A stretch of 64,000 bases of DNA from Plotosus lineatus (Eukaryota > Chordata > Actinopteri > Siluriformes > Plotosidae): positions 16,982,001 to 17,046,000 of the forward strand of contig CM045733.1 of NCBI GenBank assembly GCA_024760905.1, given 5' to 3'. Positions 3,220 through 60,150 of this stretch are shown here, piece by piece. The position numbers and the translations under genes were made by a program. Position 1 is the stretch's first letter. Each line of letters starts with the position of its first letter. The notes beneath the pieces are model-generated. The model had not been told where the DNA came from, searched no databases, and saw only the letters and a list, made by a program, of their open reading frames with translations.

Positions 3220-3266
<47 letters not shown>
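3220..3266. repeat. (AT)n microsatellite
   Basis: About 23 AT units lying between SINE-1 copy a and an RTE fragment. Confidence 0.95.
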
Positions 3267-3268
<2 letters not shown>

Positions 3269-3450
3269 TCTTTTCCTTTCAGCTTTTCCCTTCAGGGGTC
3301 GCCACAGCGAATCATCTGCCTCCATCTCACCCTATCCTTTGCATCTTCTTCTCTTACACCAACGACCTTCATGTCCTCCTTCACCACATCCATGAATCGT
3401 CTCTTTGGTCTTCCTCTAGGCCTTCTGCCTGGTAGTTCCAGAGTCAGCAT

Positions 3451-4300: not shown

Positions 4301-4329
4301 TATATATATTTTAATGAACCAATACTACT

Positions 4330-4698
4330 TCTCCTTTCGGCTGTTCCCTTTCGGGAGTCGCCACAGCGAATCATCTGCCTCCATTTTGATGGAAGTCATA
4401 TTAATGATTCGCATGTTTGATTTGGCATAGGTTTTTACGTCGGGCGTCCTTCCTGACACAACCCTTTTAGCAAGGGACAGAGACACGCTCACGGCTATGC
4501 AGCTACTCTTGATAAAAGTCAGCAATGGTTCTTTTACATGAACCTCTCACCTTGGACAGTGAGAGACAATGCCGGCCTTTGATAACCCAGTTAGCTGCAC
4601 TGGGGGGGACAGTGACAGCCTTGTGGAGAGTGGGACTCGAACCCCCAACTCTAGGATCAGCGATCCAGCACCTTTTACCACCAGGCCTCCACTGCCCC
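4330..4698 (-). mobile_element. SINE-1 copy b, RTE-tailed, 18-bp TSD
   Basis: Full-length SINE-1 on the minus strand, flanked by the perfect duplication TAATGAACCAATACTACT at 4312-4329 and 4699-4716. The tail contains the longer variant with a CATTAATATGACTTCC-like block before the RTE-derived end. The A-box region reads less well than in other copies. Confidence 0.9.
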
Positions 4699-4724: not shown

Positions 4725-5076
4725 GTCTGTCTGTCTTTCGGCTTTTTCCCTTTTACTCGGGAGTCGCCACAGCGAATCATCTGATTTGCACGTTTGATTT
4801 GGCATAGGTTTTTACGTCGGATGCCCTTCCTGTCACAACCCTTTTAGCAAGGGACAGAAACACGTTGACGACTTTGCAGCTACTCTTTACGAAAGTCAGC
4901 AATGCTTCTTTTACATGCCTCTCACCATAGACAGTGAGAGACATGGCCCGCCTTTGAAAACCCAGTTAGCCGCACTGAGGGGGACAGTGACAACCTTGTG
5001 GAGAGTGGGACTCGACCCCCCAACCTTTGGATCAGCAATCCAGCGCCCTATACCACTAGACCACCACTGCCCCCAT
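4725..5076 (-). mobile_element. SINE-1 copy c, RTE-tailed, 15-bp TSD
   Basis: Full-length copy on the minus strand flanked by TACTACTATATTACT at 4710-4724 and 5077-5091. The left duplication overlaps the right duplication of SINE-1 copy b, so this element landed at the edge of an earlier insertion. The tail ends in GACAGACAGAC-type repeats. Confidence 0.9.
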
Positions 5077-20365: not shown

Positions 20366-20720
20366 GGGGGCAGTGGTGGTCTAGTGGTATAGGGTGCTGG
20401 ATCGCTGATCCAAAGGTTGGGGGTTCGAGTCTCACTCTCCACAAGGTTGTCACTGTCCCCCCCAGTGCAGCTAACTGGGTTATCAAAGGCGGGCCATGTC
20501 TCTCACTGTCTATGGTGAGAGGCATGTAAAAGAACCATTGCTGACTTTCGTAAAGAGTAGCTGCAAAGTCGTCATCGTATTTCTGTCCCTTGCTAAAAAA
20601 GGGTTGTGACAGGAAGGGCATCCGACGTAAAAACCTCTGCTAAATCAAATGTGCGAATCAGATGATTCGCTGTGGCGACTCCCGAGTAAAAGGAAAAAAG
20701 CCGAAAGGAAGACAGACAGA
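20366..20720 (+). mobile_element. SINE-1 copy i, full length, RTE-tailed
   Basis: The best-preserved copy. A box TGGTCTAGTGGTA at 20377-20389 and B box GGTTCGAGTCT at 20422-20432; body to about 20570; RTE 5'-UTR-like block (GGTTGTGACAGGAAGGGCAT) at about 20596-20660; RTE 3' tail GATGATTCGCTGTGGCGACT, CCGAAAGGAAGACAGACAGA. Flanks CTATATATAAGG(TG/CT)ATATA form an 18-19 bp near-perfect duplication, though the flank is itself repetitive. Confidence 0.9.
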
Positions 20721-21770: not shown

Positions 21771-23278
21771 AAATGAGAGAGAAAAAAGAGAAGAAGAGGT
21801 GACTGTTGAGGACCAGGAAGTAGCAAAAATTAGTAAGGGTGAAGTGAGGAGGGCATTGAAGAGGATGAAGAATGGAAAGGCAGGTGGTCCTGATGACATA
21901 CCGGTGGAGGTATGGAAGTGTCTAGGAGAGGTAGCAGTAGATTTTCTGACAAGAACATTTAACAGGGTCTTAGAGAGTGAGAGGATGCCAGAGGAATGGA
22001 GGAGAAGTGTGCTGGTGCCCATTTTTAAGAACAAGGGAGACGTGCAGAATTGTGGCAACTACAGAGGGATAAAGTTGATGAGCCATACGATGAAGTTATG
22101 GGAAAGAATAGTGGAAGCTAGATTAAGGGCAGAGGTCAGCATTTGTGAACAACAGTTTGGTTTCATGCCAAGAAAGAGCACCACAGATGCAGTGTTTGCC
22201 TTGAGGATGTTAATGGAGAAGTACAGAGAAGGTCAGAGGGAGCTGCATTGTGCCTTTGTGGATCTGGAGAAAGCATATGACAGGGTGCCAAGAGCTGTGG
22301 TATTGCATGAGGAAGTCTGGAGTGGCAGAGAAGTATGTTAGAGTGGTGCAGGACATGTATGAGAGATGTAAGACAGTGGTGAGGTGTGCTGTCGGTGTGA
22401 CACAAGAGTTCAAGGTGGAGGTGGGACTGCATCAAGGGTCAGCTCTCAGCCCCTTCTTGTTTGCTATGGTGATGGACAGGCTGACAGACGAGGTTAGACA
22501 AGATTCCCCATGGACTATGATGTTTGCAGATGACATTGTGATCTGTAGTGAGAGCAGAGAACAAGTGCAGGAAAATCTAGAGAGGTGGAGGTATGCCCTG
22601 GAAAGGAGGGGAATGAGGATTAGCCTCAGTAAGACAGAATACATGTGCATGAATGACAAGGACCCAAGAGGACCGGTGAGATTACAGGGAGCAGAGATAA
22701 GAAAGGTGGAGGATTTTAAGTACTTAGGCTCAACAATCCAGAGCAGTGGAGAGTGTGGAAAAGAGGTCAAGAAGCGTGTGCAAGCAGGTTGGAATGGTTG
22801 GAGAAAAGTGTCCGGTGTGATGTGTGATAGGAAGGTATCGGCAAGAATGAAAGGAAAAGTGTACAAGACGGTGTTGAGGCCAACGATGTTGTATGGCTTA
22901 GAAACAGTGGCCCTGGGGAAAAGACAGGAGGCAGAGCTGGAGGTAGCAGAGATGAAAATGTTGAGGTTCTCTTTGGGAGTAACGAGGATGGATAGGATTA
23001 GGAATGAGCACATCAGAGGGACAGCACATGTAAGACGTTTTGGAGACAAAGTCAGAGAGGCTAGATTGAGATGGTTTGGACATGTACAGAGGAGGGATAG
23101 TGAGTATATTGGTAATAGGATGCTGAGGCTGGAACTACCAGGCAAAAGGCCTAGAGGAAGACCAAAGAGACGATTCATGGATGTGGTGAAGGAGGACATG
23201 AAGGTCGTTGGTGTAAGAGAAGAAGATGCAAAGGATAGGGTGAGATGGAGGCAGATGATTCGCTGTGGCGACCCCTGA
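21771..23278 (+). pseudogene. RTE retrotransposon copy 1: reverse transcriptase frame, 5'-truncated
   Basis: The frame encodes most of the reverse transcriptase and the C-terminus of an RTE-clade (BovB-like) polyprotein. Visible motifs: SVLVPIFKNKGD, NYRGIKLMSHTMKLWERI, FGFMPRKSTTDA, motif A with FVDLEKAYDRVP, motif B GLHQGSALSPFLFA, the catalytic FADDIVICS at about 22522, then YLGST and the C-terminal GRPKRRFMDVVKEDMK, RWRQMIRCGDP. A deletion of about 5 bp near 22295 (compare AGAGAGGAACTGTGG in copy 2) shifts the frame; otherwise the frame stays open to the stop. The endonuclease and N-terminus are absent through truncation. It sits inside the AT-rich minisatellite. Confidence 0.9.
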
Positions 23279-23305
23279 AGGGAAAAGCCGAAAGGAAAAG
23301 AAGTC
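23279..23305 (+). mobile_element. RTE 3' UTR, shared with SINE-1 tail
   Basis: GGGAAAAGCCGAAAGGAAAA follows the stop codon directly. Together with the preceding 30 bases of coding sequence it is the segment found at the 3' end of RTE-tailed SINE-1 copies. This is the likely recognition end for RTE reverse transcription (inferred). Confidence 0.8.
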
Positions 23306-25550: not shown

Positions 25551-25566
25551 ATTTTTGAAACCCATA

Positions 25567-25954
25567 GGGAAATGGCAGCCTGGTGGTGAAAAGTGCTGGA
25601 TCGCTGATCCTAGGGTTGGGGGATCGAGTCCCACTCTCCACAAGGCTGTCACCGCCCCAACCCCCTCCAGTGCAGCTAACTGGGTTATCAAAGGCCGGGC
25701 CATGTCTCTCACTGTCTATGGTGAGAGGTTCATGTAAAAGAACCATTGCTGACTTTTGTAAAGAGTAGCTGCATAGCCGTGAGCGTGTTTCTGCCCCTTG
25801 CTAAAGGGTTGTGTCAGGAAGGGCATCCGACGTAAAAACCTATGTCAAATCGAATATGCGAATCATTAATATGACTTCCGTGAGGATGGAGGCAGATGAT
25901 TCGCTGTGGCGTCCCCTGAAGGGAACAGCCGAAAGGAAAAGAAGAAAAAAGGAG
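25567..25954 (+). mobile_element. SINE-1 copy k, full length, RTE-tailed, 16-bp TSD
   Basis: Flanked by ATTTTTGAAACCCATA at 25551-25566 and 25955-25970. Shows the long tail: GAAGGGCATCCGACGTAAAA, AATATGCGAATCATTAATAT, GATGGAGGCAGATGATTCGC, CCCCTGAAGGGAACAGCCGA, AAGGAAAAGAAG. This copy is the clearest for comparing with RTE ends. Confidence 0.92.
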
Positions 25955-25984
25955 ATTTTTGAAACCCATAAAATGAGCATTGGG

Positions 25985-26535
25985 GACATAATGGCTCACT
26001 CGTTAGTAGTATTGGCACTGAGCCAGAAGGTGCTGGGTTCGAAGCTTGTAGCCAACTGGGGCCTTTTTGTGTGGTGTTTATGTTCCGTGTTCCTGATGTT
26101 CTTGCATGGGTTCTTCTACGTCAAGGGGTGCTCAATCCTGCTCCTGGAGATCTACCTTCCAGATGACTTTATCTCCAACCCGAATGTGACATGTTTGACA
26201 TGTAAGATCCAGTCAGGTCTTAAGACGTTTCAAAGTCCCTTGATGAGATGATTGGATGGTTAAGTGGGCATGATTATGGTTGGAGCGAACACTTTCTGGA
26301 AGATAGATCTACAGGAGCAGGATTCAGCACCCCTATTCTACGTGCTCCATCCAAGAGCATGCAGATCAGGTCAACTGGTTGCACTGAATCGCCCGTGGGT
26401 GTGAATATGATTGTCAGTGGTTGTTTGTGTCTCTACTAATCCTACAGTGGATTGGTGACCTGTTCAGGGTGTACCCCACCTTTTGTCTGAAATCAGGTTG
26501 TGTCGGTTCCAGCTTCCCCCACAACCCTGGCAGAT
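25985..26535 (+). mobile_element. SINE-2 copy split by a hAT MITE
   Basis: Head and B box (GTGCTGGGTTCGAAGC), TTCCGTGTTCCTGATGTTC, then interruption at 26122-26335, then TCCAAGAGCATGCAGATCAG, GTGGGTGTGAATATGATTGT and GACCTGTTCAGGGTGTACCC. Diverged. Confidence 0.65.
26122..26335. mobile_element. Short hAT MITE with perfect TSD
   Basis: 214 bp. Ends AAGGGGTGCTCAATCCTGCT and (reverse complement) AGGGGTGCTGAATCCTGCTC, matching over about 39 bases with few mismatches. TTCTACGT flanks both sides (26114-26121, 26336-26343). No frame. Confidence 0.85.
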
Positions 26536-29985: not shown

Positions 29986-30485
<500 letters not shown>

Positions 30486-30486
30486 G

Positions 30487-30816
30487 ATCCAATGCAGCCG
30501 TGAGGGGGCACAAACCAGTGTCCATCCTTACGCCGATCCCAAGCCTGGATAAATGCAGAGGGTTGCGACAGGAAGGGCATTCGGCGTATAACTTTTGACA
30601 GAATACAGAATGCGAATCGTCAAAACAAATTTCATATCGGCTCAGTCGAGGCCTGGGTTAATAATGACCGCCGTCAGTGCTGTTAACTAACAGGGTGCTG
30701 GTGGAAATTGGATTACTGTTGGTCGAAGGAGAGGTCGAAGAAGGAGAGGCGGGAGGCGTGTCCGTAGGCAGAGAGAGAAGAGGAAAGGCATAAGTCTAGG
30801 ACTGAGAGTAGGGACT
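30487..30816 (+). mobile_element. 5' UTR of RTE copy 2
   Basis: Starts near CAGCCGTGAGGGGGCACAAA and includes GGGTTGCGACAGGAAGGGCA, ACAGAATGCGAATCG and GGTGCTGGTGGAAATTGG before the endonuclease frame. The 30547-30617 part closely resembles the block before the tail of SINE-1, for example 25806-25870. Its presence makes this copy near full length at its 5' end. Confidence 0.75.
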
Positions 30817-31908
30817 TTGAATGTTGGAACTATGACAGGAAAAGGTAGAGAGCTGGCTGACATGATGCAGAGGAGGAAGGTGGACATACTGTGTGTTCAG
30901 GAGACCAGGTGGAAAGGTAGCAAGGCTAGAAGCTTAGGAGCAGGGTTTAAGCTCTTTTATCATGGTGTGGATGGGAAGAGAAATGCAGTAGGGGACATCT
31001 TGAAGGAGGGATTGGTCAGGAATGTTCTAGAAGTGAAAATAGTGTCAGACAGAGTGATGAGTCTCAAGTTAGAAATTGAAGGCATGATGTTCAATGTTGT
31101 TAGTGCTTATGCCCCACAGGCAGGATGTGATCTAGAAAAGGAGAGATTCTGGAGTGAGTTAGATGAAGTGATGCAGAGTAACCCCAGAAGTGAAACAGTG
31201 GTCATTGGTGCAGACTTCAATGGACATGTTGGTGCAGGCAACAAAGGGGACCAGGAAGTGAAGGGCAGGTTTGGTATCCAGGACAGGAACGCAGAGGGAC
31301 AGATGTTGACAGCTTTTGCAAAAAGGATGGACATGGCTGTGGTGAATACTTTCTTCCAGAAGAGACAGGAACATAGGGTGACTTATGAAAGCAGTGGTAG
31401 GAGCACACCGGTAGACTACATCTTGTGTAGACGATGTAATTTGAAGGAAGTCAGTGACTGAAAAGTAGTAGTGGGTGAGAGTGTTGCCAAACAGCATAGA
31501 ATGGTGGTAAAGGTGAAGAAGGCAAAGGCAGAGCAGAAGACAAAGTGGTGGAAGCTGAAAAAGGAAGAGGGTCGTGTTGTCTTCAAGGAGGAGTTGAAAC
31601 AGGCTTTGGGTGGTCAGGAATTGCTTCCAGATGACTGGACAACCAGAGCAAATGTGATCAGGGAGACAGGTAAGAGAGTACTTGGTGTGTCCTCTGGAAG
31701 GACAGTAGATAAGGAGACTTGGTGGTGGAATGAGGAAGTGCAGGAGTGTGTACAAAGGAAGAGGTTAGCTAAGCAGAAGTGGGACATTGAGAGGGCCGAA
31801 GAGAGTAAACAGGAGTACAGGGAGACACAGCGTAAGGCGAAGGTAGCAGTGTCAAAGGCCAAGCAGAGGGCGTATGATGACTTGTATGATAGGTTGGACA
31901 GTAAGGAA
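30817..31908 (+). pseudogene. RTE copy 2: AP-endonuclease and linker region, broken
   Basis: Frame from MNVGTMTGKGRELADMM. AP-endonuclease signatures: ILCVQETRWKG (catalytic Glu), NVVSAYAPQAG, VIGADFNGHVG (Asp and Asn), STPVDYILCRR, and AKQHRMVV with the terminal His. TGA at 31459-31461 breaks the frame at a probable Trp codon just before KVVVGESVAKQ. The second open part (31471-31908) is the linker rich in K and E: KTKWWKLKKEEGRVVFKEEL and ETWWWNEEVQECVQRKRLAK. The endonuclease nicks target DNA to prime reverse transcription (family knowledge). Such frames are often labelled 'craniofacial development protein 2-like' in fish databases. Confidence 0.9.
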
Positions 31909-32165
31909 GATAAGATAAGATAAGATAAGATACAGCTTTATTAATCTCACAATGGAGAAATTCACTGTTACAGGCTCTTGAGGTACTATCAGTAGGTGGT
32001 GCAAAAATAGATACAAGTACAAACATACACACATACATATATATTATATAAGTAAATAAATAAATAGATACATAAATAGTATAAATTACTAAACAATAAA
32101 AGAAAAGAAAAGAATGGAGCAACTTTATAGACTGGCCTATATTAAAGTGTAATGTATCTGAGTGC
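31909..32165 (-). mobile_element. Rex1/CR1-like LINE 3' UTR inserted in RTE copy 2
   Basis: The minus strand ends TTTCTCCATTGTGAGATTAA, TAAAGCTGTATC, then TTATC repeats, a 3' end I associate with Rex1-type LINEs of fish. About 255 bp. Around it the RTE coding sequence continues (KEDK... then LYRLAQQRNRDRKDVQQVRM), so this insertion is younger than RTE copy 2. Confidence 0.65.
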
Positions 32166-32899
32166 AGAGAACATGATCTATAAAGGTTGGCACAGCAGAG
32201 AAATAGAGATAGGAAGGACGTGCAGCAAGTTAGAATGATTAAGGACAGAGTGGGAAATGTATTGACTGATGACAGAAGAGTGCTGGGAAGATCGGAAGAG
32301 TACTTAGAAGGGCTGATGAATGAGGAAAATGAGAGGGAAAAAAGAGTAGACTAGGTGACTGTTGAGGACCAGGAAGTAACAAAGATTAGTAAGGGTGAAG
32401 GGAGGAGGGCATTGAACAGGATGAAGAGTGGAAAGGCAGTTGGTTCTGATGACATACCGGTAGAGGTAGCAGTAGATTTTCTGACAAGACCATTCAACAA
32501 GGTCTTAGAGAGTGAGCAGATGCCGGAGGAATGGAGGAGAAGTGTGCTGGTGCCCTTTTTTAAGAAGAAGGGAGATGCGCAGAGTTGTGGCAACTACAGA
32601 GGGATAAAGTTGATGAGTCATACGATGAAGTTATGGGAAAGAATAGTGGAAGCTAGACTAAGGGCAGAGGTCAGCATTTGTGAACAACAGTTTGGTTTCA
32701 TGCCAAGAAAGAGCACCACAGATGCAGTGTTTGCTTTGAGGATGTTAATAGAGAAGGTCAGAGGGAGCTGCATTGTGCCTTTGTAGGTCTGAAGAAAGCA
32801 TATGGCAGGATGCCGAGAGAGGAACTGTGGTATTGCATGAGGAAGTCTGGAGTGGCAGAGAAGTTATGTTAGAGTGGTGCATGACATGTAAGAGAGATG
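32166..32899 (+). pseudogene. RTE copy 2: reverse transcriptase, first part, broken
   Basis: Begins LAQQRNRDRKDVQQVRMIKD and LMNEENEREKRVD then a TAG. Continues RMKSGKAVGSDDIPVE (with about 24 bp lost relative to copy 1), FLTRPFNKVLESEQMPEEW, GNYRGIKLMSHTMKLW and PRKSTTDAVFALRMLIEK, then frameshift near 32755 and stops. The full AGAGAGGAACTGTGG sequence lost in copy 1 is present at about 32815. Cut at 32900 by a Tc1-like element. Confidence 0.85.
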
Positions 32900-32901
32900 T
32901 A

Positions 32902-33602
32902 CAGTGGTATGAAAAAGTATCTGAACCTTTTGGAATTTCTCACATTTCTGCATAAAATCACCATCAAATGTGATCTGATCTTTGTCAAAATCACACAGAT
33001 GAAAAAACAGTGTCTGATTTAACTAAAACCACCCTAACATTTATAGGTTTTCATATTTTAATGAGGATAGCATGCAAACAATGACAGAAGGGGGAGGAAT
33101 CAGTAACTGAACCATCACATTTAATATTTTGTGGCCCCCCCCTTTGGCAGCAATAACTTCAACCAGACGCTTCCTGTAGCTGCAGATCAGTCTGACACAT
33201 CGATCAGGACTAATCTCGGCCCATTCTTCTTTACAAAACTGCTGTAGTTCAGTCAGATTCCTGGAATGTCTGGCATGAATCGCTGTCTTGAGGTCATGCC
33301 ACAGCATCTCAGTGGGGTTCAAGTCTGGACTTTGACTTGGCCACTCCAGAACGTGTATTTTGTTCTTCTGAAACCATTCTGAAGTTGATTTACTTCTGTG
33401 TTTTGGATTATTGTCTTGTTGCAGCATCCGTCCTCTTTTTATCTTCAACTGTCTGACAGACGGCCTCAGGTTTTCCTGCAAAACATCCTGATAAACTTTT
33501 GAATTCATTTTTCCATTAATGATTGCAAGTTGTCCAGGCCCCGAGGCAGCAAAACAGCCCCAAACCATGATGCACCCTCCCCCATGCTTCACGGTGGGGA
33601 TG
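32902..33602 (-). mobile_element. Tc1-like transposon, one end missing
   Basis: The left terminus CAGTGGTATGAAAAAGTATC follows TA at 32900-32901, the rule for Tc1/mariner. The element carries the 3' half of a transposase on the minus strand and stops abruptly at about 33602, followed by about 30 unassigned bases before RTE sequence resumes. RTE sequence corresponding to 22371-22489 of copy 1 is missing there, so a deletion removed the other Tc1 end with adjoining RTE DNA. Confidence 0.8.
33041..33592 (-). pseudogene. Tc1-like transposase, C-terminal half
   Basis: Minus-strand frame MKHGGGCIMVWGCFAASGPG, then MLQQDNNPKHRSKSTSEWF with the second catalytic Asp, then [20 protein letters not shown] with the catalytic Glu. 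The N-terminal paired-type HTH domains and the first catalytic Asp are missing. The open frame near the C-terminus may run past the natural stop. Confidence 0.85.
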
Positions 33603-33631
33603 AGGTGTTGATGTTGGTGACCTTAGAAGTT

Positions 33632-34420
33632 AGAGGTTAGACAAGAATCTCCATGGACTGTGATGTTTGCAGATGACATTGTGATCTGTAGTGAGAGCAG
33701 AGAACAAGTGTAGGAAAATCTAGAGAGGTGGCGGTATGCCCTGGAAAGGAAAGGAATGAAGGCTAGCCTCAGTAAGACAGAATACATGTGTGTGAATGAC
33801 AAGGACCCAAGAGGAACATTGAGGTTACAGGGTGCAGAGATAAGGTAGGTGGAGGATTTTAAGTACTTCGGCTCAACATTCCAGAGCAATGGAGAGTGTG
33901 GAAAAGAGATGAAGAAGCGTGTGCAGGCAAGTTGGAATGGTTGGAGAACACGTCCGGTGTGATGTGTGATAGGAAGGTATCAGCAAGAATGAAAGGAAAA
34001 GTGTACAAGACGGTGTTGAAGCCAGCAATGTTGTATGGTTTAGAAACAGTGGCACTGAGGAAAAGACAGGAGGCAGAACTGGAGGTAGCAGAGATGAAAA
34101 TGTTGAGGTTCTCTTTGGGAGTAACGAGGATGGATAGGATCAGGAATGAGTACATCAGAGGGACAGCACATGTAACAGGTTTTGGAGACAAAGTCAGAGA
34201 GGCTAGATTGAGATGGTTTGGACATTTACAGAGGAGGGATAGTGAATATGTTGGTAGAAGGATGCTGAGGTTGGAACTACCAGGCAGAAGGACTAGAGGA
34301 AGACCAAAGAGAAGATTTATGGATGTGGTAAAGGAGGGCATGAAGGTAGTTGGAGTAAGAGTCGAAGATGCAGAGGATAGGGTGAGATGGAGGCAGATGA
34401 TTCACTGTGGCGACCCCTGA
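33632..34420 (+). pseudogene. RTE copy 2: reverse transcriptase, second part to C-terminus
   Basis: Resumes at RLDKNLHGL-type sequence with MFADDIVICSESREQV followed by TAG at about 33711. Continues with several small defects (TAG at about 33846, a one-base change near 33945) and ends GRRTRGRPKRRFMDVVKEGM, RWRQMIHCGDP and TGA. The 3' UTR GGGAACAGCCGAAAGTAAAA follows to about 34460. Confidence 0.85.
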
Positions 34421-34530
34421 AGGGAACAGCCGAAAGTAAAAGAAGAAAAAAGAAGAAGAGAATTAATGGATCCCCAAGGAAATTGTGTGTAGTAAAGAAT
34501 AAGATCAAGTTCCAATATAAGAAAAATTAC

Positions 34531-34646: not shown

Positions 34647-34902
34647 TGGAGATTTAGCTCAGTTAGTAGAGCGTCCACTTTATCCTTTGGAAGGTTGGAG
34701 TTCGAATCTGGCTGCGTCATACCATAAGATGTTAAAATTTGGTAGTTGTTGCTTCCTGCTTGGTGCTCAGCATCAAAGGATAGAACAATGCAATAACTGG
34801 CGCTGCACAATGGCGACAGGTGCCCAAAGCACAAAAAACACCAAAGAGCACTTTGAGCATAATATTCAGTATGGATCAAGCGCTATATAAATCTACTACT
34901 AT
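34647..34902 (+). mobile_element. SINE-5 (tRNA-derived)
   Basis: The head GGAGATTTAGCTCAGTTAGT with AGAGCG closely follows a tRNA 5' half and A box; GGTTGGAGTTCGAATCTGG holds the B box. The body has GCTTCCTGCTTGGTGCTCAG and GTGCCCAAAGCAC. The tail AAGCGCTATATAAATC resembles ends found on L2-mobilised SINEs. The anticodon arm region is disturbed, so it is not a functional tRNA gene. Confidence 0.75.
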
Positions 34903-44149: not shown

Positions 44150-44775
44150 ATCACGACTCTGGTTTCCTTCCACAGTCCAAAAACATGCACAGTAAACTAT
44201 TTGGCCCATCTGAATCGCCTCTAGGTGTGAAAATGAGTGTGAACGGTTGTATTTGTGTTGGCTCTTTAAAGGGGATGGTGGCAGTGGTGGTCTAGTGGTA
44301 TAGGGCGCTGGATCGCTGATCCAAAGGTTGGGGGTTCAAGTCCCACTCTCCACAAGGTTGTCACTGTCCCTCCCAGTGCAGCTAACTGGGTTATCAAAGG
44401 TGGGCCATGTCTCTCACTGTCTATGGTGTGAGGCATGTAAAAGAACCATTGCTGACTTTCGTAAAGAGTAGACTGCAAAGTCGTCAGCGTGTTTCTGTCC
44501 CTTGCTAAAAGGGTTGTGACAGGAAGGGCATCCGACGTAAAAAAAAAAAAAAAAAAAAACCTCTGCCAAATTAAAAACGTGCGAATCAGATGATTCGCTG
44601 TGGCGACTCCCGAGTTAAAAGGGAAAAAGCCGAAAGGAAGACAGACTTTAAAGGGGATGGTGAGCTGTTCAGGGTGTTCAGGGTGTACCCTGCCCTCTCA
44701 CAGAGTCCACTGAGATGGGCACCAGCCTCCCCGCGACTCTAATTAGGATTAAGCTGTTCAGAAAATGAATGAAAA
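44150..44775 (+). mobile_element. SINE-2 copy split by SINE-1 copy o
   Basis: Left part: CTGGTTTCCTTCCACAGTCC to GTGTTGGCTC. Right part from 44663: GAGCTGTTCAGGGTGTACCC (with one small repeat) to GGATTAAGCTGTTCAGAAAA. The head is missing. Confidence 0.75.
44281..44646 (+). mobile_element. SINE-1 copy o, full length, RTE-tailed, 16-bp TSD
   Basis: Flanked by TTTAAAGGGGATGGTG at 44265-44280 and 44647-44662. A box TGGTCTAGTGGTA, B box GGTTCAAGTCC. A run of about 20 A residues interrupts the segment after CATCCGACGTAA. Ends CCGAAAGGAAGACAGAC. Confidence 0.92.
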
Positions 44776-45594: not shown

Positions 45595-46194
45595 CAGGGA
45601 TCCCTCACTTTCCGTGGTTAATGGGGACCGAGACCCCTCCCTCTCCCCCAGCGACCAATGATTTCCTCAATGTAGGATCGACCCCTCTGACTGACGTATA
45701 CGGACATGTATATGTGTATATAATATCAATAAATACATATTCAATGCTATACATGCTTATAATAACAATTCATCAGTTCAGTTCATTTTCTGTACACGCT
45801 TAATCCTAGTTTGGGTCGCGGGGAAGCTGGTGCCCATCCCAGCCAACTTCGGGCGAGGGCAGAGTACACCCTGGACAGCTCGCCAGGCCATCGCAGGGCG
45901 GAAACACGCTGACGACTTTGCAGCCTACTCTTGTCGAAAGTCAGCAATGGTTCTTTTACATGCCTCACACCATAGACAGTGAGAGACACGGCCAGCCTTT
46001 GATAACCCAGTTAGCTGCACTGGGGGGACAGTGACAACCTTATGGAGGGTGGGGCTCGAACCCCCAACCTTTGGATCAGTGATCCAGGACCCTATACCAC
46101 TAGACCACCACTGCCCTGTAATAACAATTAAACATTCAAAAATAATGCATAATGCATAAGATGTAAATAAAATATAAATGCACACATACAGACG

Positions 46195-47543: not shown

Positions 47544-47637
47544 TCTGTTGAATGTAGCAAGAGGAATCCAAAGTTTTTGTGCAATATGAATCAGCTGTCC
47601 ACCCTCAGACTGATGTCCAAAAATATCTTTGAAAATC

Positions 47638-47905
47638 ACTCATTCATTTTCTGAACCGCTTAATCCTAATTATGGTCGCGGGGCTGGTGCCAATTGAAGC
47701 CAACTCTTTGGGAGGGTGAGATACACCCTGAACATTTTGTATTACCATCACAGGGTCAACACTCACACATCCATTCACACTCACACCTATCTCTGATTTA
47801 AAGCAGCCAATTAACCTACTGTGCATGTTTTTGGACCGTGGGAGGAAACCGAAGGCCTTCCTGCTGTGAGGCGGACATGCTAAACAGTAGGCTGTTGTGC
47901 CACCC
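47638..47905 (-). mobile_element. SINE-2 copy
   Basis: Minus strand: head ending CTCACAGCAGGAAGGCC, GGTTTCCTCCCACGGTCCAA, TTAGGTGTGAGTGTGAATGG-type segment, tail GGATTAAGCGGTTCAGAAAA and TGAATGA. The B-box part is lost. Confidence 0.75.
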
Positions 47906-48824: not shown

Positions 48825-49168
48825 AGTTCACCTTATAGCAGGATCCTGGGTTCAATTCTTGGGCTCGGGAGTATTAATGTGAAGTTTGTATCGTCTCCTC
48901 GTACTCGCGTGGGTTTCCTTTGGGTACACTGTTTTTTTCCCCCCCACAGTCCAAAGACATGCACATTGGGCTAAGTGGCTGTTCCAAATCACCTTGGGGT
49001 TTGACTGCATGTGTGAATGGTTGTATTTCTGTTAGTCCTGCGATGGCCTGGCGAGTTGTCCCGGGTGTACCCTGCCCTCAGTCAGAGTTGGCTGAGATGA
49101 GCACCAGCCTCCCCGTGACTCAAACTAGGATTAAACAGCTTAGAAAATGAATGAATGAATGTTTTGCA
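48825..49168 (+). mobile_element. SINE-2 copy, nearly complete
   Basis: B box GGGTTCAATTCTTGG, GTGGGTTTCCTTTGGGTAC, CACAGTCCAAAGACATGCAC, GGCGAGTTGTCCCGGGTGTA, GGATTAAACAGCTTAGAAAA and GAATGAATGAATG. The A-box half is degraded. Confidence 0.78.
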
Positions 49169-49336
49169 GTTGATCTAAAAATGTTAAATGTGAAAACTGG
49201 TTGTAGTTGTAAAAGGTAAAGTGCAAAATAAGCAGAAAACCTAAAAATCAAACTCAAAAAAAAAATTTTCTGTCTTTAACATCTAAAGTCCTATACCTTA
49301 ACATGCACTTTTAAGGATATAAAGTCACTGAGATGG

Positions 49337-49600
49337 GGCAGTGGTGGTCTGGTAGTAAAAGCTGCTGGATCACTGATCCTACGGTTGGGTAGGTTGGGTT
49401 ACGGTTGAGTAGCTGCATAGCCATGAGTGTGTTCCTGTCCCTTGCTAAAGGGTTGTGTCAGGAAGGGCATCCGACGTAAAAACTCATGCCAAATCAAACA
49501 TGCGAATCATTAATCTGACTTCCATGAAGACGGAGGCAGATGATTCGCTGTGGCGACCCCTAAAGGGAACAGCCAAAAGGAAAAGATGAAGAAGAAAATG
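49337..49600 (+). mobile_element. SINE-1 copy r, internally deleted, RTE-tailed
   Basis: Flanked by ACTGAGATGG at 49327-49336 and 49601-49610. The head is present; most of the central body is missing between GGGTTACGGTT and GAGTAGCTGCATAGCC; the long tail is intact through CGACCCCTAAAGGGAACAGC. Confidence 0.88.
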
Positions 49601-56399: not shown

Positions 56400-57050
56400 G
56401 AGAGGTGGCTAAGTGGTTAGCACAGTGAGTTCTGGGGTCGAATTCCAGCCAAGAGCCTTTCTCAGGGCAGCGGGCAGTGGTGGTTTCTCAGGGGGGGCAG
56501 TGGTGGTCTGGTGGTAAAGGGCGCTGGATCGCTGATCCTAGGTTTGAGGGTTCAATTCCCACTCTCCACAAGGTTGTCTCTGTCCCCCAGTGCAGCTGAC
56601 TGGGTTATCAAAGGCCGGCCATGTCTCTCACTGTCTATGGTGAGAGGTTCATGTAAAAGAACCATTGCTGACTTTGGTAAAGAATAGCTGCATAGCTGTC
56701 AGCGTGTTTCTGTCCCTTGCTAAAGGGTTGTGTCAGGAAGGGCATCCGACGTAAAAACCTATACCAAATCAAATATGCGATGATTCGCTGTGGCAACCCC
56801 TGAGAAAAAGGGAACAGCTGAAAAGGAAATGAAGACGCCTTTCTCTATGGAGTTTGCATGTTCTCCCCACTTGCATGAGTTTCTTCCTGGTACTCTGGTG
56901 TCCTCCCACAGTCCAAATACATGCACATAAGACTAATTGGATGTTTTCACATTGCCCCTTGGAGTGAGTGTGCACTGTGATGGTCTGGTGAGCTGTTCAG
57001 GATGTACCCCGCCTTCGACCAGTGTCAACTGAGATATTCTTCAGGATCAT
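56400..57050 (+). mobile_element. SINE-2 copy split by SINE-1 copy t
   Basis: Left: GGTGGCTAAGTGGTTAGCAC (A box) and GGGTCGAATTCCAGC (B box). Right from 56846: TATGGAGTTTGCATGTTCTC, CCCACAGTCCAAATACATGC, GTTCAGGATGTACCCCGCC. The RNA polymerase III boxes are better preserved here than in most SINE-2 copies. Confidence 0.78.
56464..56836 (+). mobile_element. SINE-1 copy t, RTE-tailed, with duplicated 5' end
   Basis: Flanked by GCCTTTCTC at 56455-56463 and 56837-56845. The first 40 bp (CGGGCAGTGGTGGTTTCTCA) repeat the start of the head before the full head begins (GGGGGGGCAGTGGTGGTCTG). The tail is TGATTCGCTGTGGCAACCCC. Confidence 0.85.
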
Positions 57051-57413: not shown

Positions 57414-57747
57414 GAAGGGCAGTGGTGGCCTAGTAGTAAAGGTAATGGATCACTGATCCTAAGGTTGGGGGTTCAAGCCCCACTCTCCCTGGGTTGTCAC
57501 TGTCCCCCCCAGTGCAGCTAACTGGGTTATCAAAAGTCGGCCATGTCTCTCACTGTCTATAGTTAGAGGTTCATGTAAAAGAACCATTGCTGACTTTCGA
57601 CAAGAGTAGCTGTATAGCCGTCAGCATGTTTAAGCCCTGTGATGGCCTGGCAAGCTGTCCAGGGTGTACTCTGCCCTTGCTTGAAGTCGGCTGGGATTAT
57701 CGCCAGCCTCCTCGCGACCCTAATTAGGATTAAGTGGTTACAGAAAA
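57414..57747 (+). mobile_element. SINE-1 copy u, full length, SINE-2 type tail, 15-bp TSD
   Basis: Flanked by TGAATATGTGGTATA at 57399-57413 and 57748-57762. Head, body (CTGACTTTCGACAAGAGTAG), then GGCAAGCTGTCCAGGGTGTA and GGATTAAGTGGTTACAGAAA. This full-length example proves that the alternative tail is part of the mobile unit. Confidence 0.93.
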
Positions 57748-57762
57748 TGAATATGTGGTATA

Positions 57763-59034: not shown

Positions 59035-59429
59035 AGGTGCCCGTTCAATAATGAATAGCTGATTTGTTTTGTCTTCCATTATCAGTTCATTTTTGCCTGA
59101 ATACAGAACGATTTCCTGATGAAGCTTGTGGACTTTGTATTTCCGAATCACCTGTTTTACATCTTGTTTTGGTTACAGTAACAATAACAAGACTATGTGA
59201 CCAGAGGAATCTTGATCTTGTACATGCGTGATAACTTGGCAGTGCAAGACGGATTCATGGAAGCTGGAAAAGTCTGAGATCAAGTGTTAGGTTGGGAAAA
59301 AAGAAAACCTACAATTTCAAGAGGAATAAAACGATTGTGATGTTTACTAATATCATTGTGTCTGTGGCAGGGGTTTTTGAAAAGTGCATACAGGAGTAAG
59401 CAAATGGTTTCAGAAATCCATTTCCATTT
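59035..59429. other. Unique sequence, no gene seen
   Basis: No recognised element or frame. Confidence 0.4.
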
Positions 59430-59603
59430 CCAGCATTTTGTAGACACTCTTATCCAGAGCGACTTACAATTATCATTTTGTTTTGTACAACTGAGCAATT
59501 GAAAGTTAAGGGCCTTGCTCAAGGGCCCAATAGTGGTGACAGTGGGGATTGAACCACTGACCTTCAGATTAGAAACCCGAACCACTAAGCCGCCACTGCC
59601 CTA
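59430..59603 (-). mobile_element. SINE-6 (tRNA-derived, 'TTATCCAGAGCGACTTACA' type)
   Basis: Minus strand: GGGCAGTGGCGGCTTAGTGG (A box), GTCAGTGGTTCAATCCCC (B box), then GGGCCCTTGAGCAAGGCCCT, TGTAAGTCGCTCTGGATAAG and AGTGTCTACAAAATGC. This is one of the most common repeat types of teleost genomes as I recall. Confidence 0.8.
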
Positions 59604-59699: not shown

Positions 59700-60150
59700 G
59701 TGGAACCATGGTGGCATAGCAGTTGTCACATCTGTCTCACAGGAAGAAGGTCCTGGGTTCAAGTCCCAGGTTCAGCACGGATGTGAGTTCCATTTTCTCC
59801 TAAAGCTTGCATAGGTATACTCCGGGTTCCTCCCAAAGGCCAAAGACATGCATGTTAGGCTAATGGGCTGTTTCAAAATGGTCCCTAGGTGTGAGTGTAA
59901 ATTGTGCGTTTGTTGGCCCTATGATGAGCTGTTCAGGGTGTACTTTGCCTTCACCCCAAGGGAGCTGAGAGCCTAATAGGATTAAGCAGATTTGCAACTG
60001 AATGAATGAATTTTGGTCTGAAGGGCCTGCGATGACCTGGCGAGGTGTCCAGGGTGTACCCCACCCTCATCCAGAGTCCTTTGAGATGGCCGCCATCCTC
60101 CCAGCGATCGTAATTAGGATTAAGCGGTTCAGAAAATGAATGAATGAATG
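59700..60150 (+). mobile_element. SINE-2 copy followed by a SINE tail fragment
   Basis: 59700-60012: ATGGTGGCATAGCAGTTGTC, CAGGAAGAAGGTCCTGGG, GGTTCAAGTCCCAGG, GCCAAAGACATGCATGTTAG, GAGCTGTTCAGGGTGTAC, AGGATTAAGCAG and GAATGAATGAA. 60025-60150 is a second tail: GGCGAGGTGTCCAGGGTGTA to GGATTAAGCGGTTCAGAAAA and GAATGAATGAATG. Confidence 0.78.

What the first reader, a model, noticed from the sequence alone, without database searches (positions are those of the whole stretch)
25567..25954. SINE-1 is assembled from both ends of the RTE retrotransposon
Seen: the last ~60 bp of RTE-tailed SINE-1 copies (e.g. 25885-25950) match the RTE 3' end at 23245-23305 and 34385-34450, including codons for the final RWRQMI.CGDP residues. 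In addition, SINE block 25806-25870 (GGTTGTGTCAGGAAGGGCAT ... GCGAATCATTAA) resembles the RTE 5' UTR at 30547-30617. So the SINE is: tRNA head, unknown body, RTE 5'-UTR piece, RTE 3' end. Known: ruminant Bov-tA/ART-2 SINEs have a comparable relation to BovB RTE. Inferred: an RTE with an internal deletion fused to a tRNA-headed SINE, possibly an independent parallel to the ruminant case.
Basis: partly seen in the sequence, partly recalled or inferred. Interest (0 to 1): 0.75.

Follow-up and report, generated by a model that had tools for sequence, protein, structure and literature searches.

The report
Fish SINE built on shrunken retrotransposon
A short parasitic DNA element in a fish genome carries a miniature of a larger retrotransposon, with pieces from near its front end and from its back end behind a tRNA-like start, and likely stepping-stone elements are still present in the same genome.

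Summary
Confirmed and extended. SINE 25567-25954 is one retrotransposed unit (perfect 16-bp target-site duplication): tRNA head, body, then ~80 nt of the RTE 5' UTR joined to the last ~70 nt of the same RTE. The 5'-UTR block is real: score 48-50 against at most 30 in 1000 shuffles, present in 12 of 12 RTE-tailed window copies. The same head and body also occur with an L2-like tail (9 copies, more diverged), so the RTE tail looks like a replacement. RTE copies start at the predicted cleavage site of a type-P1 twister-like sequence (20 of 20 loci searched plus the window copy; all below Rfam's curated cut-off). Twelve internally deleted mini-RTEs, plus one doubtful, were found elsewhere in the genome (six read in full); reversed-pattern controls gave none. 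The SINE's RTE block begins where the twister ends, so the catalytic core is absent. Best explanation: recurrent internal deletion of the RTE, then template jumping that joined an L2-tailed SINE to RTE sequence at the ribozyme edge. This parallels what is printed on ruminant Bov-tA/Bov-A2: a new variant of a known kind. A 5'-3' RNA stem is suggestive, not shown.

The parts
25551..25566 (+). left target-site duplication ATTTTTGAAACCCATA
25567..25642 (+). tRNA-like head (presumed Pol III promoter)
   Evidence: Rfam tRNA 25583-25642 at 17 bits here; better kept copies reach 33.6 and 33.4 bits, above the 29-bit cut-off (44281-44354; 4997-5070 minus)
25643..25798 (+). SINE body, shared with L2-tailed copies, no match to the RTE above shuffles
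25799..25881 (+). piece of the RTE 5' UTR (RTE positions about 65-146)
   Evidence: ends read by eye
25858..25866 (+). 5' arm GCGAATCAT of a possible RNA stem
   Evidence: suggestive only
25882..25954 (+). RTE 3' end (last codons and 3' tail)
   Evidence: 93-95% to RTE 34382-34455 and 23240-23303; start read by eye
25896..25904 (+). 3' arm ATGATTCGC, complementary to 25858-25866
   Evidence: suggestive only
25955..25970 (+). right target-site duplication
30491..34454 (+). RTE copy starting at the predicted twister cleavage site, interrupted by later insertions; flanks AGAGAATTAATTGATCC / AGAGAATTAATGGATCC
   Evidence: (flank score 14; one of 60 random placements reached 15)
30486..30566 (+). 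type-P1 twister-like sequence, 44.1 bits (curated cut-off 67.2)
30554..30635 (+). RTE 5'-UTR stretch found in the SINE
   Evidence: ends read by eye
30817..31461 (+). RTE endonuclease reading frame
   Evidence: Pfam PF14529 and PF03372; fish relatives, several named craniofacial development protein 2-like
34382..34454 (+). RTE 3' end found in the SINE
23158..23303 (+). second RTE 3' end
3266..3412 (-). third RTE 3' end
4325..4697 (-). RTE-tailed SINE copy, same junction type A, 18-bp duplication
20368..20715 (+). RTE-tailed SINE copy of the shorter-junction type B
44281..44645 (+). RTE-tailed SINE copy, type B, 17-bp duplication
57417..57752 (+). L2-tailed copy of the same SINE head and body
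45777..46116 (-). L2-tailed copy of the same SINE head and body
30157..30484 (+). L2-tailed SINE copy directly upstream of the RTE; its 3' end is read by eye

Best explanation
SINE-1 with the RTE tail is a three-part chimera. Shown: an RTE whose copies start at a predicted twister cleavage site; mini-RTEs that keep twister sequence and the RTE 3' end but lack nearly the whole reading frame; and SINEs that keep the stretch just after the twister plus the RTE 3' end, behind a tRNA head and body which in other, more diverged copies end in an L2-like tail. Inferred: RTE reverse transcriptase repeatedly skips the middle of its RNA and leaves mini-RTEs; during one such reverse transcription it left the RTE or mini-RTE template at the twister edge and went on along an L2-tailed SINE RNA, giving a SINE with an RTE tail. 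Also inferred: transcription is by Pol III from the tRNA head, insertion is by the RTE protein through the shared 3' end, and loss of the ribozyme core was needed because an active ribozyme inside the SINE would cut the promoter-bearing head from the tail.
For: Both RTE blocks and their order. RTE 5' ends: 26 of 30 copies begin AATGCAGC-like at the expected base; the 12 flanking columns carry 0.07-0.53 bits, columns 1-9 carry 1.56-2.00 bits in 28 rows. Twister-P1 hits in 20 of 20 RTE loci given to (20 of the 29 fetched besides the window copy), 35-60 bits; in 5 of 5 mini-RTEs, 34-58 bits, and in 0 of 8 SINE loci. Mini-RTEs: 5 hits, control 0; 12 hits, control 0; 13 separate loci, one of them doubtful. 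Three of the 5 have 16-17-bp duplications. Element L073 (339 bp between 15-bp duplications with one mismatch) joins a SINE fragment ending GACTTCC to a twister-bearing mini-RTE that has the SINE's own junction, so sequences of the two kinds were joined in one insertion. L2-tailed copies are more diverged than RTE-tailed ones (mean identity 0.837 in 36 pairs, 0.904 in 153).
Against: The direct parent is not proved. The multi-copy mini-RTE form breaks near GCGARTCAC, not at the SINE's TTCCAT; the only mini-RTE found with the SINE's junction is L073 (exact patterns), which may have got that part from a SINE by a further jump. The direction L2 to RTE rests on a weakly supported tree (2 of 18 inner branches starred; 21 of 27 rows used), and 7 of the 18 RTE-tailed rows were picked by similarity to an RTE-tailed query. 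Twister scores are below Rfam's cut-off, the alignment shows no double-sided changes, and activity is untested. The 30 RTE copies were the best matches to a query that itself starts at 30491, so full-length copies were favoured. Pol III use and RTE dependence are inferred.
Confidence: 0.8

Rival explanations
1. The SINE took its tail straight from a full-length RTE RNA in one multi-jump event (3' end to 5' UTR to SINE body); the mini-RTEs are independent side products.
For: Three of 12 pattern hits have other break points, plus one doubtful, so such skips recur; no mini-RTE with the SINE's junction other than L073 was found by exact patterns.
Against: A multi-copy mini-RTE form exists. The SINE subfamily A block scores 65-81 against the 5 mini-RTEs and 62 against the RTE consensus; for subfamily B only 3 of 5 score above the RTE consensus. 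L073 carries the SINE's junction behind a twister.
Confidence: 0.25
2. Ordinary 3'-tail sharing only; the internal block is a chance match or a stretch unrelated to the RTE 5' UTR.
For: The 5' block is less alike (77% in the window) than the 3' block (93-95%).
Against: None of 1000 shuffles came near the score; 30 RTE copies carry the stretch between twister and reading frame; mini-RTEs carry twister, block and 3' end in one piece.
Confidence: 0.02
3. The RTE 5' UTR acquired the block from the SINE rather than the reverse.
For: Sequence alone does not polarise a shared block.
Against: In the RTE and in mini-RTEs the block is continuous with the twister-like sequence; the 9 L2-tailed relatives in the window have another sequence in its place.
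Confidence: 0.03

Closest known systems
Bov-tA and Bov-A2 SINEs with BovB (ruminants)
   Same: Table 1 of PMC3747384 lists Bov-A2 with a promoter from the 5' end of BovB and a Bov-B tail, and Bov-tA with a tRNA-Glu promoter and a Bov-B tail. PMC4324840 (passages) reports a proposal that Bov-A2, whose two units are homologous to Bov-B, is a Pol II retroposon. Same logic: mini-RTE plus tRNA-headed derivative.
   Different: Different host, and here the SINE body is shared with an L2-tailed relative. No ruminant sequence was compared; whether Bov-A2 carries a twister remnant was not tested.
RTESINE1, MAR4, RTE1-N1_LA (mammals)
   Same: Listed with promoter '5'-end of RTE' and an RTE tail (PMC3747384 Table 1); they correspond to the mini-RTEs here.
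   Different: Mammalian; the fish section of that table lists no SINE with an RTE tail.
Short internally deleted elements: Persaeus, NARTc/RIME, R2 SIDEs
   Same: Internally deleted LINEs with both ends kept (PMC6740152 passages; PMC4035085 passages); NARTc-type elements and an R2 SIDE are described with a 5' ribozyme.
   Different: Those ribozymes are HDV-like; here the sequence is twister-like and the LINE is RTE.
Truncated twister ribozymes at RTE 5' ends
   Same: PMC7761336 (passage) states that truncated but catalytically competent twisters are conserved at the 5' end of RTE retrotransposons (cited there as in preparation).
   Different: No link to SINEs or mini-RTEs in the passages seen.
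Chimeric SINEs HaSE1/HaSE2/HaSE3
   Same: Similar head with different 3' parts (HaSE1 with an RTE tail), and template switching proposed for HaSE3 (PMC3272025 passages).
   Different: Insect; no LINE 5'-end block mentioned in the passages seen.

Membership tests
tRNA-headed SINE | tRNA-like Pol III promoter head | tested here: met
   Rfam tRNA above cut-off in two window copies, 33.6 and 33.4 bits; other copies, the one of the finding included, score below it
tRNA-headed SINE | target-site duplications around the unit | tested here: met
   7 of 12 RTE-tailed copies score above all 60 random placements (one of the 7 is an AT repeat), 5 of 12 do not; none of 9 L2-tailed copies does
tRNA-headed SINE | 3' tail shared with a partner LINE | tested here: met
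Bov-tA/Bov-A2-type two-ended RTE SINE | RTE 5'-region piece joined to RTE 3' end | tested here: met
Bov-tA/Bov-A2-type two-ended RTE SINE | common descent with the ruminant elements | not tested
   no ruminant sequence was compared
Short internally deleted element (the mini-RTEs) | LINE 5' and 3' ends without the reading frame, inserted with duplications | tested here: met
   L039-L041: duplications of 16-17 bp; L042 and L043: none found
RTE/BovB-type LINE | endonuclease and reverse transcriptase domains | tested here: met
   PF14529, PF03372, PF00078; relatives
RTE/BovB-type LINE | place in a clade tree | not tested
   clade name rests on protein names and on recall
Type-P1 twister ribozyme | Rfam curated score | tested here: not met
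   35-60 bits against 67.2 in 20 RTE loci, 34-58 in 5 mini-RTEs, 44.1 in the window; E-values 8e-4 to 6e-11 in the RTE loci
Type-P1 twister ribozyme | helices kept by compensatory changes | tested here: inconclusive
   92.7% of cells paired, slid controls 24-46%, but no double-sided change, and shuffles do as well or better
Type-P1 twister ribozyme | self-cleavage | not testable with these tools
   only the agreement of the element's 5' end with the predicted cleavage site

The most novel reading that the evidence does not exclude
SINE birth at a ribozyme edge: the RTE needs its twister to make its RNA 5' end, a tRNA-headed SINE must lose it, and what both keep is a 5'-UTR arm (GCGAATCRTC) that pairs with the RTE 3' end (GATGATTCGC). 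The multi-copy mini-RTEs and the main SINE types would then keep the 5' block because the 5'-3' stem helps the RTE protein recognise its template, with only the loop between the arms shrinking.
Probability: 0.25. Interest if true: 0.75.

Novelty: new variant of a known kind. Interest (0 to 1): 0.55.

Why it matters
How SINEs acquire LINE sequences is usually reconstructed from end products. Here the LINE, internally deleted forms of it, the more diverged L2-tailed SINE, the RTE-tailed SINE and one chimera of SINE and mini-RTE lie in one genome, so the steps can be ordered and dated. The link to a twister-like sequence gives a concrete, testable reason for where the fusion point lies and why mini-RTEs and tRNA-headed SINEs differ at their 5' ends. 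It would also be a counterpart, probably independent, of the ruminant Bov-A2/Bov-tA pair.

Tried and rejected
Chance match and tail-sharing-only: rejected. HDV-like ribozyme: not among the hits listed. Covariation support for the twister within this family: none. Longest complementary stretch between RTE 5' UTR and 3' end, Watson-Crick / with G-U, shuffles at least as long out of 1000: window RTE 818 / 824, RTE consensus with the 23240 end 998 / 992, L061 357 / 682, SINE A 8 / 73, mini-RTE L040 24 / 341. In the window RTE (Watson-Crick) and in the RTE consensus the longest stretch was not the proposed arm. Pairing of the two arms inside the same RTE copy: 16 of 30 copies usable (14 dropped, 3' end missing or partial), 144 of 160 positions paired against 139.9 permuted, p = 0.009, rows not independent, five of the 16 with the same C.A mismatch. 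Folds show the stem in SINE A, SINE B and L040; z of the whole stretch -2.8, -0.8, -3.6. Three of 12 deleted elements, plus a doubtful fourth, end upstream of the 5' arm, which counts against the arm being needed for a single jump. Viral contigs: two patterns, no hit. Paper search with short DNA strings: none. PDB: no relative of the endonuclease piece.

Papers: passages only of PMC7761336, PMC10085705, PMC6740152, PMC8620236, PMC4324840, PMC4035085, PMC3272025, PMC6951006; passages and part 1 of the figures-and-tables section of PMC3747384. Others only in search listings. No whole text was read.

Full report
What was checked. The given coordinates, 25567-25954, are exactly one retrotransposed unit: it lies between perfect 16-bp duplications (25551-25566, 25955-25970). 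BLAST within the window finds the last 75 nt in the RTE 3' end at 34382-34455 (93%) and most of them at 23240-23303 (95%), and an internal stretch 25805-25864 in the RTE 5' UTR at 30559-30618 (77%, E = 1e-5). Alignment of the 12 RTE-tailed copies in the window shows the internal block in all 12. Consensus blocks of the two subfamilies score 48 and 50 against the window RTE; 1000 dinucleotide shuffles of each reached at most 29 and 30; the body of the SINE shows no signal (19, shuffle mean about 22).

Two tails on one SINE. Nine further copies in the window share head and body but end in a different tail, which gives 19 BLAST hits in the window, some without this head. The tail looks L2-like; that label is from recall. 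RTE-tailed copies resemble each other more (mean 0.904, 153 pairs of 18 rows: 11 of the 12 window copies and 7 genome loci) than L2-tailed copies do (0.837, 36 pairs of 9 rows); between groups 0.854. The tree, on 21 of the 27 rows, needs two label changes and is weakly supported, and the 7 genome rows were chosen by similarity to an RTE-tailed copy. The RTE tail is probably a younger replacement.

The RTE. Its frames carry endonuclease and reverse transcriptase domains. A search with the endonuclease piece gave 1026 related proteins; the 120 listed, where named, are mostly from fishes, several called craniofacial development protein 2-like, a name I recall as attached to BovB-type RTE proteins. 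The genome holding the window has 1.33 Gb in 30 contigs. First-look candidates, only 40 of them scored in each case, numbered 7444 for the SINE and 5184 for the RTE 5' end.

The RTE starts at a predicted twister cleavage site. Rfam finds a type-P1 twister at 30486-30566 (44.1 bits), the only twister hit listed for the window at E up to 0.5. Its model puts the cleavage between C30490 and A30491 (which bond is cut is recalled), and the flank repeat around the RTE copy ends at 30490 (score 14, which one of 60 random placements exceeded). Of 30 copies, the window's included, 26 start AATGCAGC-like at this base; of the four others L035 and L036 differ by a letter, L027 starts there when read by eye, L016 is unclear; flanking columns carry 0.07-0.53 bits, columns 1-9 1.56-2.00 bits. 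The copies were the best matches to a query starting there, so full-length ones were favoured; the abrupt end of conservation upstream does not depend on that. Of 12 RTE copies examined for duplications, 6 had a clear one (score 13 or more), each ending within 3 nt of the AATGC start. Twister hits occur in 20 of 20 loci given. All scores are below the curated cut-off, and the outer P1 strand lies in flanking DNA, in line with a published remark on truncated but competent twisters at RTE 5' ends (PMC7761336, passage). The one-family alignment gives no compensatory changes.

Mini-RTEs. A pattern joining the twister's 3' part to the RTE 3' end across 60-90 nt matched 5 places, control 0. Each has an AATGCAG start, a twister hit (34-58 bits), the 5'-UTR block and then the RTE 3' end, with no tRNA head of its own. 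Three have 16-17-bp duplications, two have none found. A second pattern gave 12 places, control 0: four known, L073 (below), and seven new ones seen only as the first 80 letters of the match, since the loci could not be cut out. Together 13 loci. One of them (C12:19664672) shares only the nine pattern letters with the twister before RTE frame sequence and may be a chance flank, which leaves 12. The patterns are exact, so this is a lower bound. By the letters shown, 8 of the 12 places run through the 5' block to the arm; three have other break points (in or just after GAGGG, at ATGCA, after CATCCG), and the fourth is the doubtful one. Internal deletion is therefore recurrent, and one form is multi-copy.

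How regular the two-ended SINE is. Among 77 RTE 3'-end hits with at least 150 nt upstream in the window and 70 loci (333 kb; loci chosen for SINE, RTE or mini-RTE, overlapping ones counted twice, hits with less upstream sequence left out), 31 have SINE body plus 5' block, 37 have RTE frame only, 5 are the mini-RTEs, and four are mixed or partial, among them one SINE body without a detected block and one SINE body with RTE frame.

SINE against mini-RTE. The SINE block starts at TGC, within the 3' strand of the twister's P2, and continues to TTCCAT; the ribozyme core before it is gone. At the join, L2-tailed SINEs read CTGCCCTGC, the RTE AAATGCAGAGGG and the fused SINE CTGCCCCTTGCTAAAGGG, so TGC may have served as microhomology (read by eye). 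Subfamily B has a shorter junction (GCGAATCAGATGATTCGC) and copy 56495 another.

A chimera caught. Element L073, 339 bp between 15-bp duplications with one mismatch, consists of a fragment matching about SINE positions 223-310 followed by a mini-RTE with twister sequence and the SINE's own junction. A second pattern found no other such junction. It shows that sequences of SINE and mini-RTE were joined in one insertion, most simply by a template jump. It does not prove that such a mini-RTE was the SINE's parent, as its 3' part may itself have come from a SINE.

A possible 5'-3' stem. The retained 5' block holds GCGAATCAT and the 3' end ATGATTCGC, reverse complements. RNA folds form this helix in SINE A, SINE B and mini-RTE L040. 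In RTE copies, 5' GCAAACCGTA goes with 3' GATGGTTTGC (3 copies exactly, 2 with one further change), and GCGAATCGTC with GATGATTCGC (2 copies exactly, the window copy with one change), but five copies have a C.A mismatch; 144 of 160 positions pair against 139.9 permuted, p = 0.009 with non-independent rows, 16 of 30 copies usable. Helix length alone is not unusual in the RTE, and with G-U pairs not in L040 either; at least three deleted elements lack the arm. This is a lead, not a result.

Mechanism. Most likely: reverse transcription of the RTE skipped the middle of the template and left mini-RTEs; a further jump at the twister edge joined such a template to an L2-tailed SINE RNA. The product is transcribed from its tRNA head and moved by the RTE protein through the shared 3' end. 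Loss of the ribozyme would be a condition of success, since it would cut the head off the transcript. The jumps are supported by L073 and by the varied break points; Pol III use, RTE dependence and ribozyme activity are inferred.

Known relatives. Bov-A2, RTESINE1, MAR4 and RTE1-N1_LA are listed with promoters from an RTE 5' end, Bov-tA with a tRNA-Glu head and Bov-B tail; the same table's fish section has no RTE-tailed SINE (PMC3747384 Table 1). Nine paper searches were answered. In the listings of those on twister with RTE or SINE and on RTE-tailed fish SINEs no title or abstract start pointed to this fish SINE; I read no further into most of them, and repeat databases were not available. 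I file it as a new variant of a known kind.

Noticed in passing
window 59427-59480 (-): Rfam UnaL2 3' element (51.6 bits, cut-off 55) at the end of a separate tRNA-headed SINE-like element, unlike SINE-1.
   Followed up: partly
window 32905-33620: A Tc1/mariner-like DNA transposon (DDE_3 domain, ORF 33044-33592 minus) inserted in the RTE copy; another insertion of about 300 bp lies near 31915-32220 (by eye).
   Followed up: partly
window 49040-49158, 60029-60147, 44675-44773, 47636-47734: Copies of the L2-like tail with no SINE-1 body directly in front, perhaps from its partner LINE or other SINEs.
   Followed up: no
window 34649-34720 and 25985-26400: Further tRNA-like or SINE-like stretches beside the RTE and beside the SINE of the finding, seen by eye.
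   Followed up: no
window 56495-56835: An RTE-tailed SINE copy with a third junction type (ATGC joined to GATGATTCGC) that has lost most of the 5' arm.
   Followed up: no
window 49336-49600: An RTE-tailed SINE copy that lacks the stretch from the middle of its head to the last part of the body, an internal deletion of the SINE itself.
   Followed up: no
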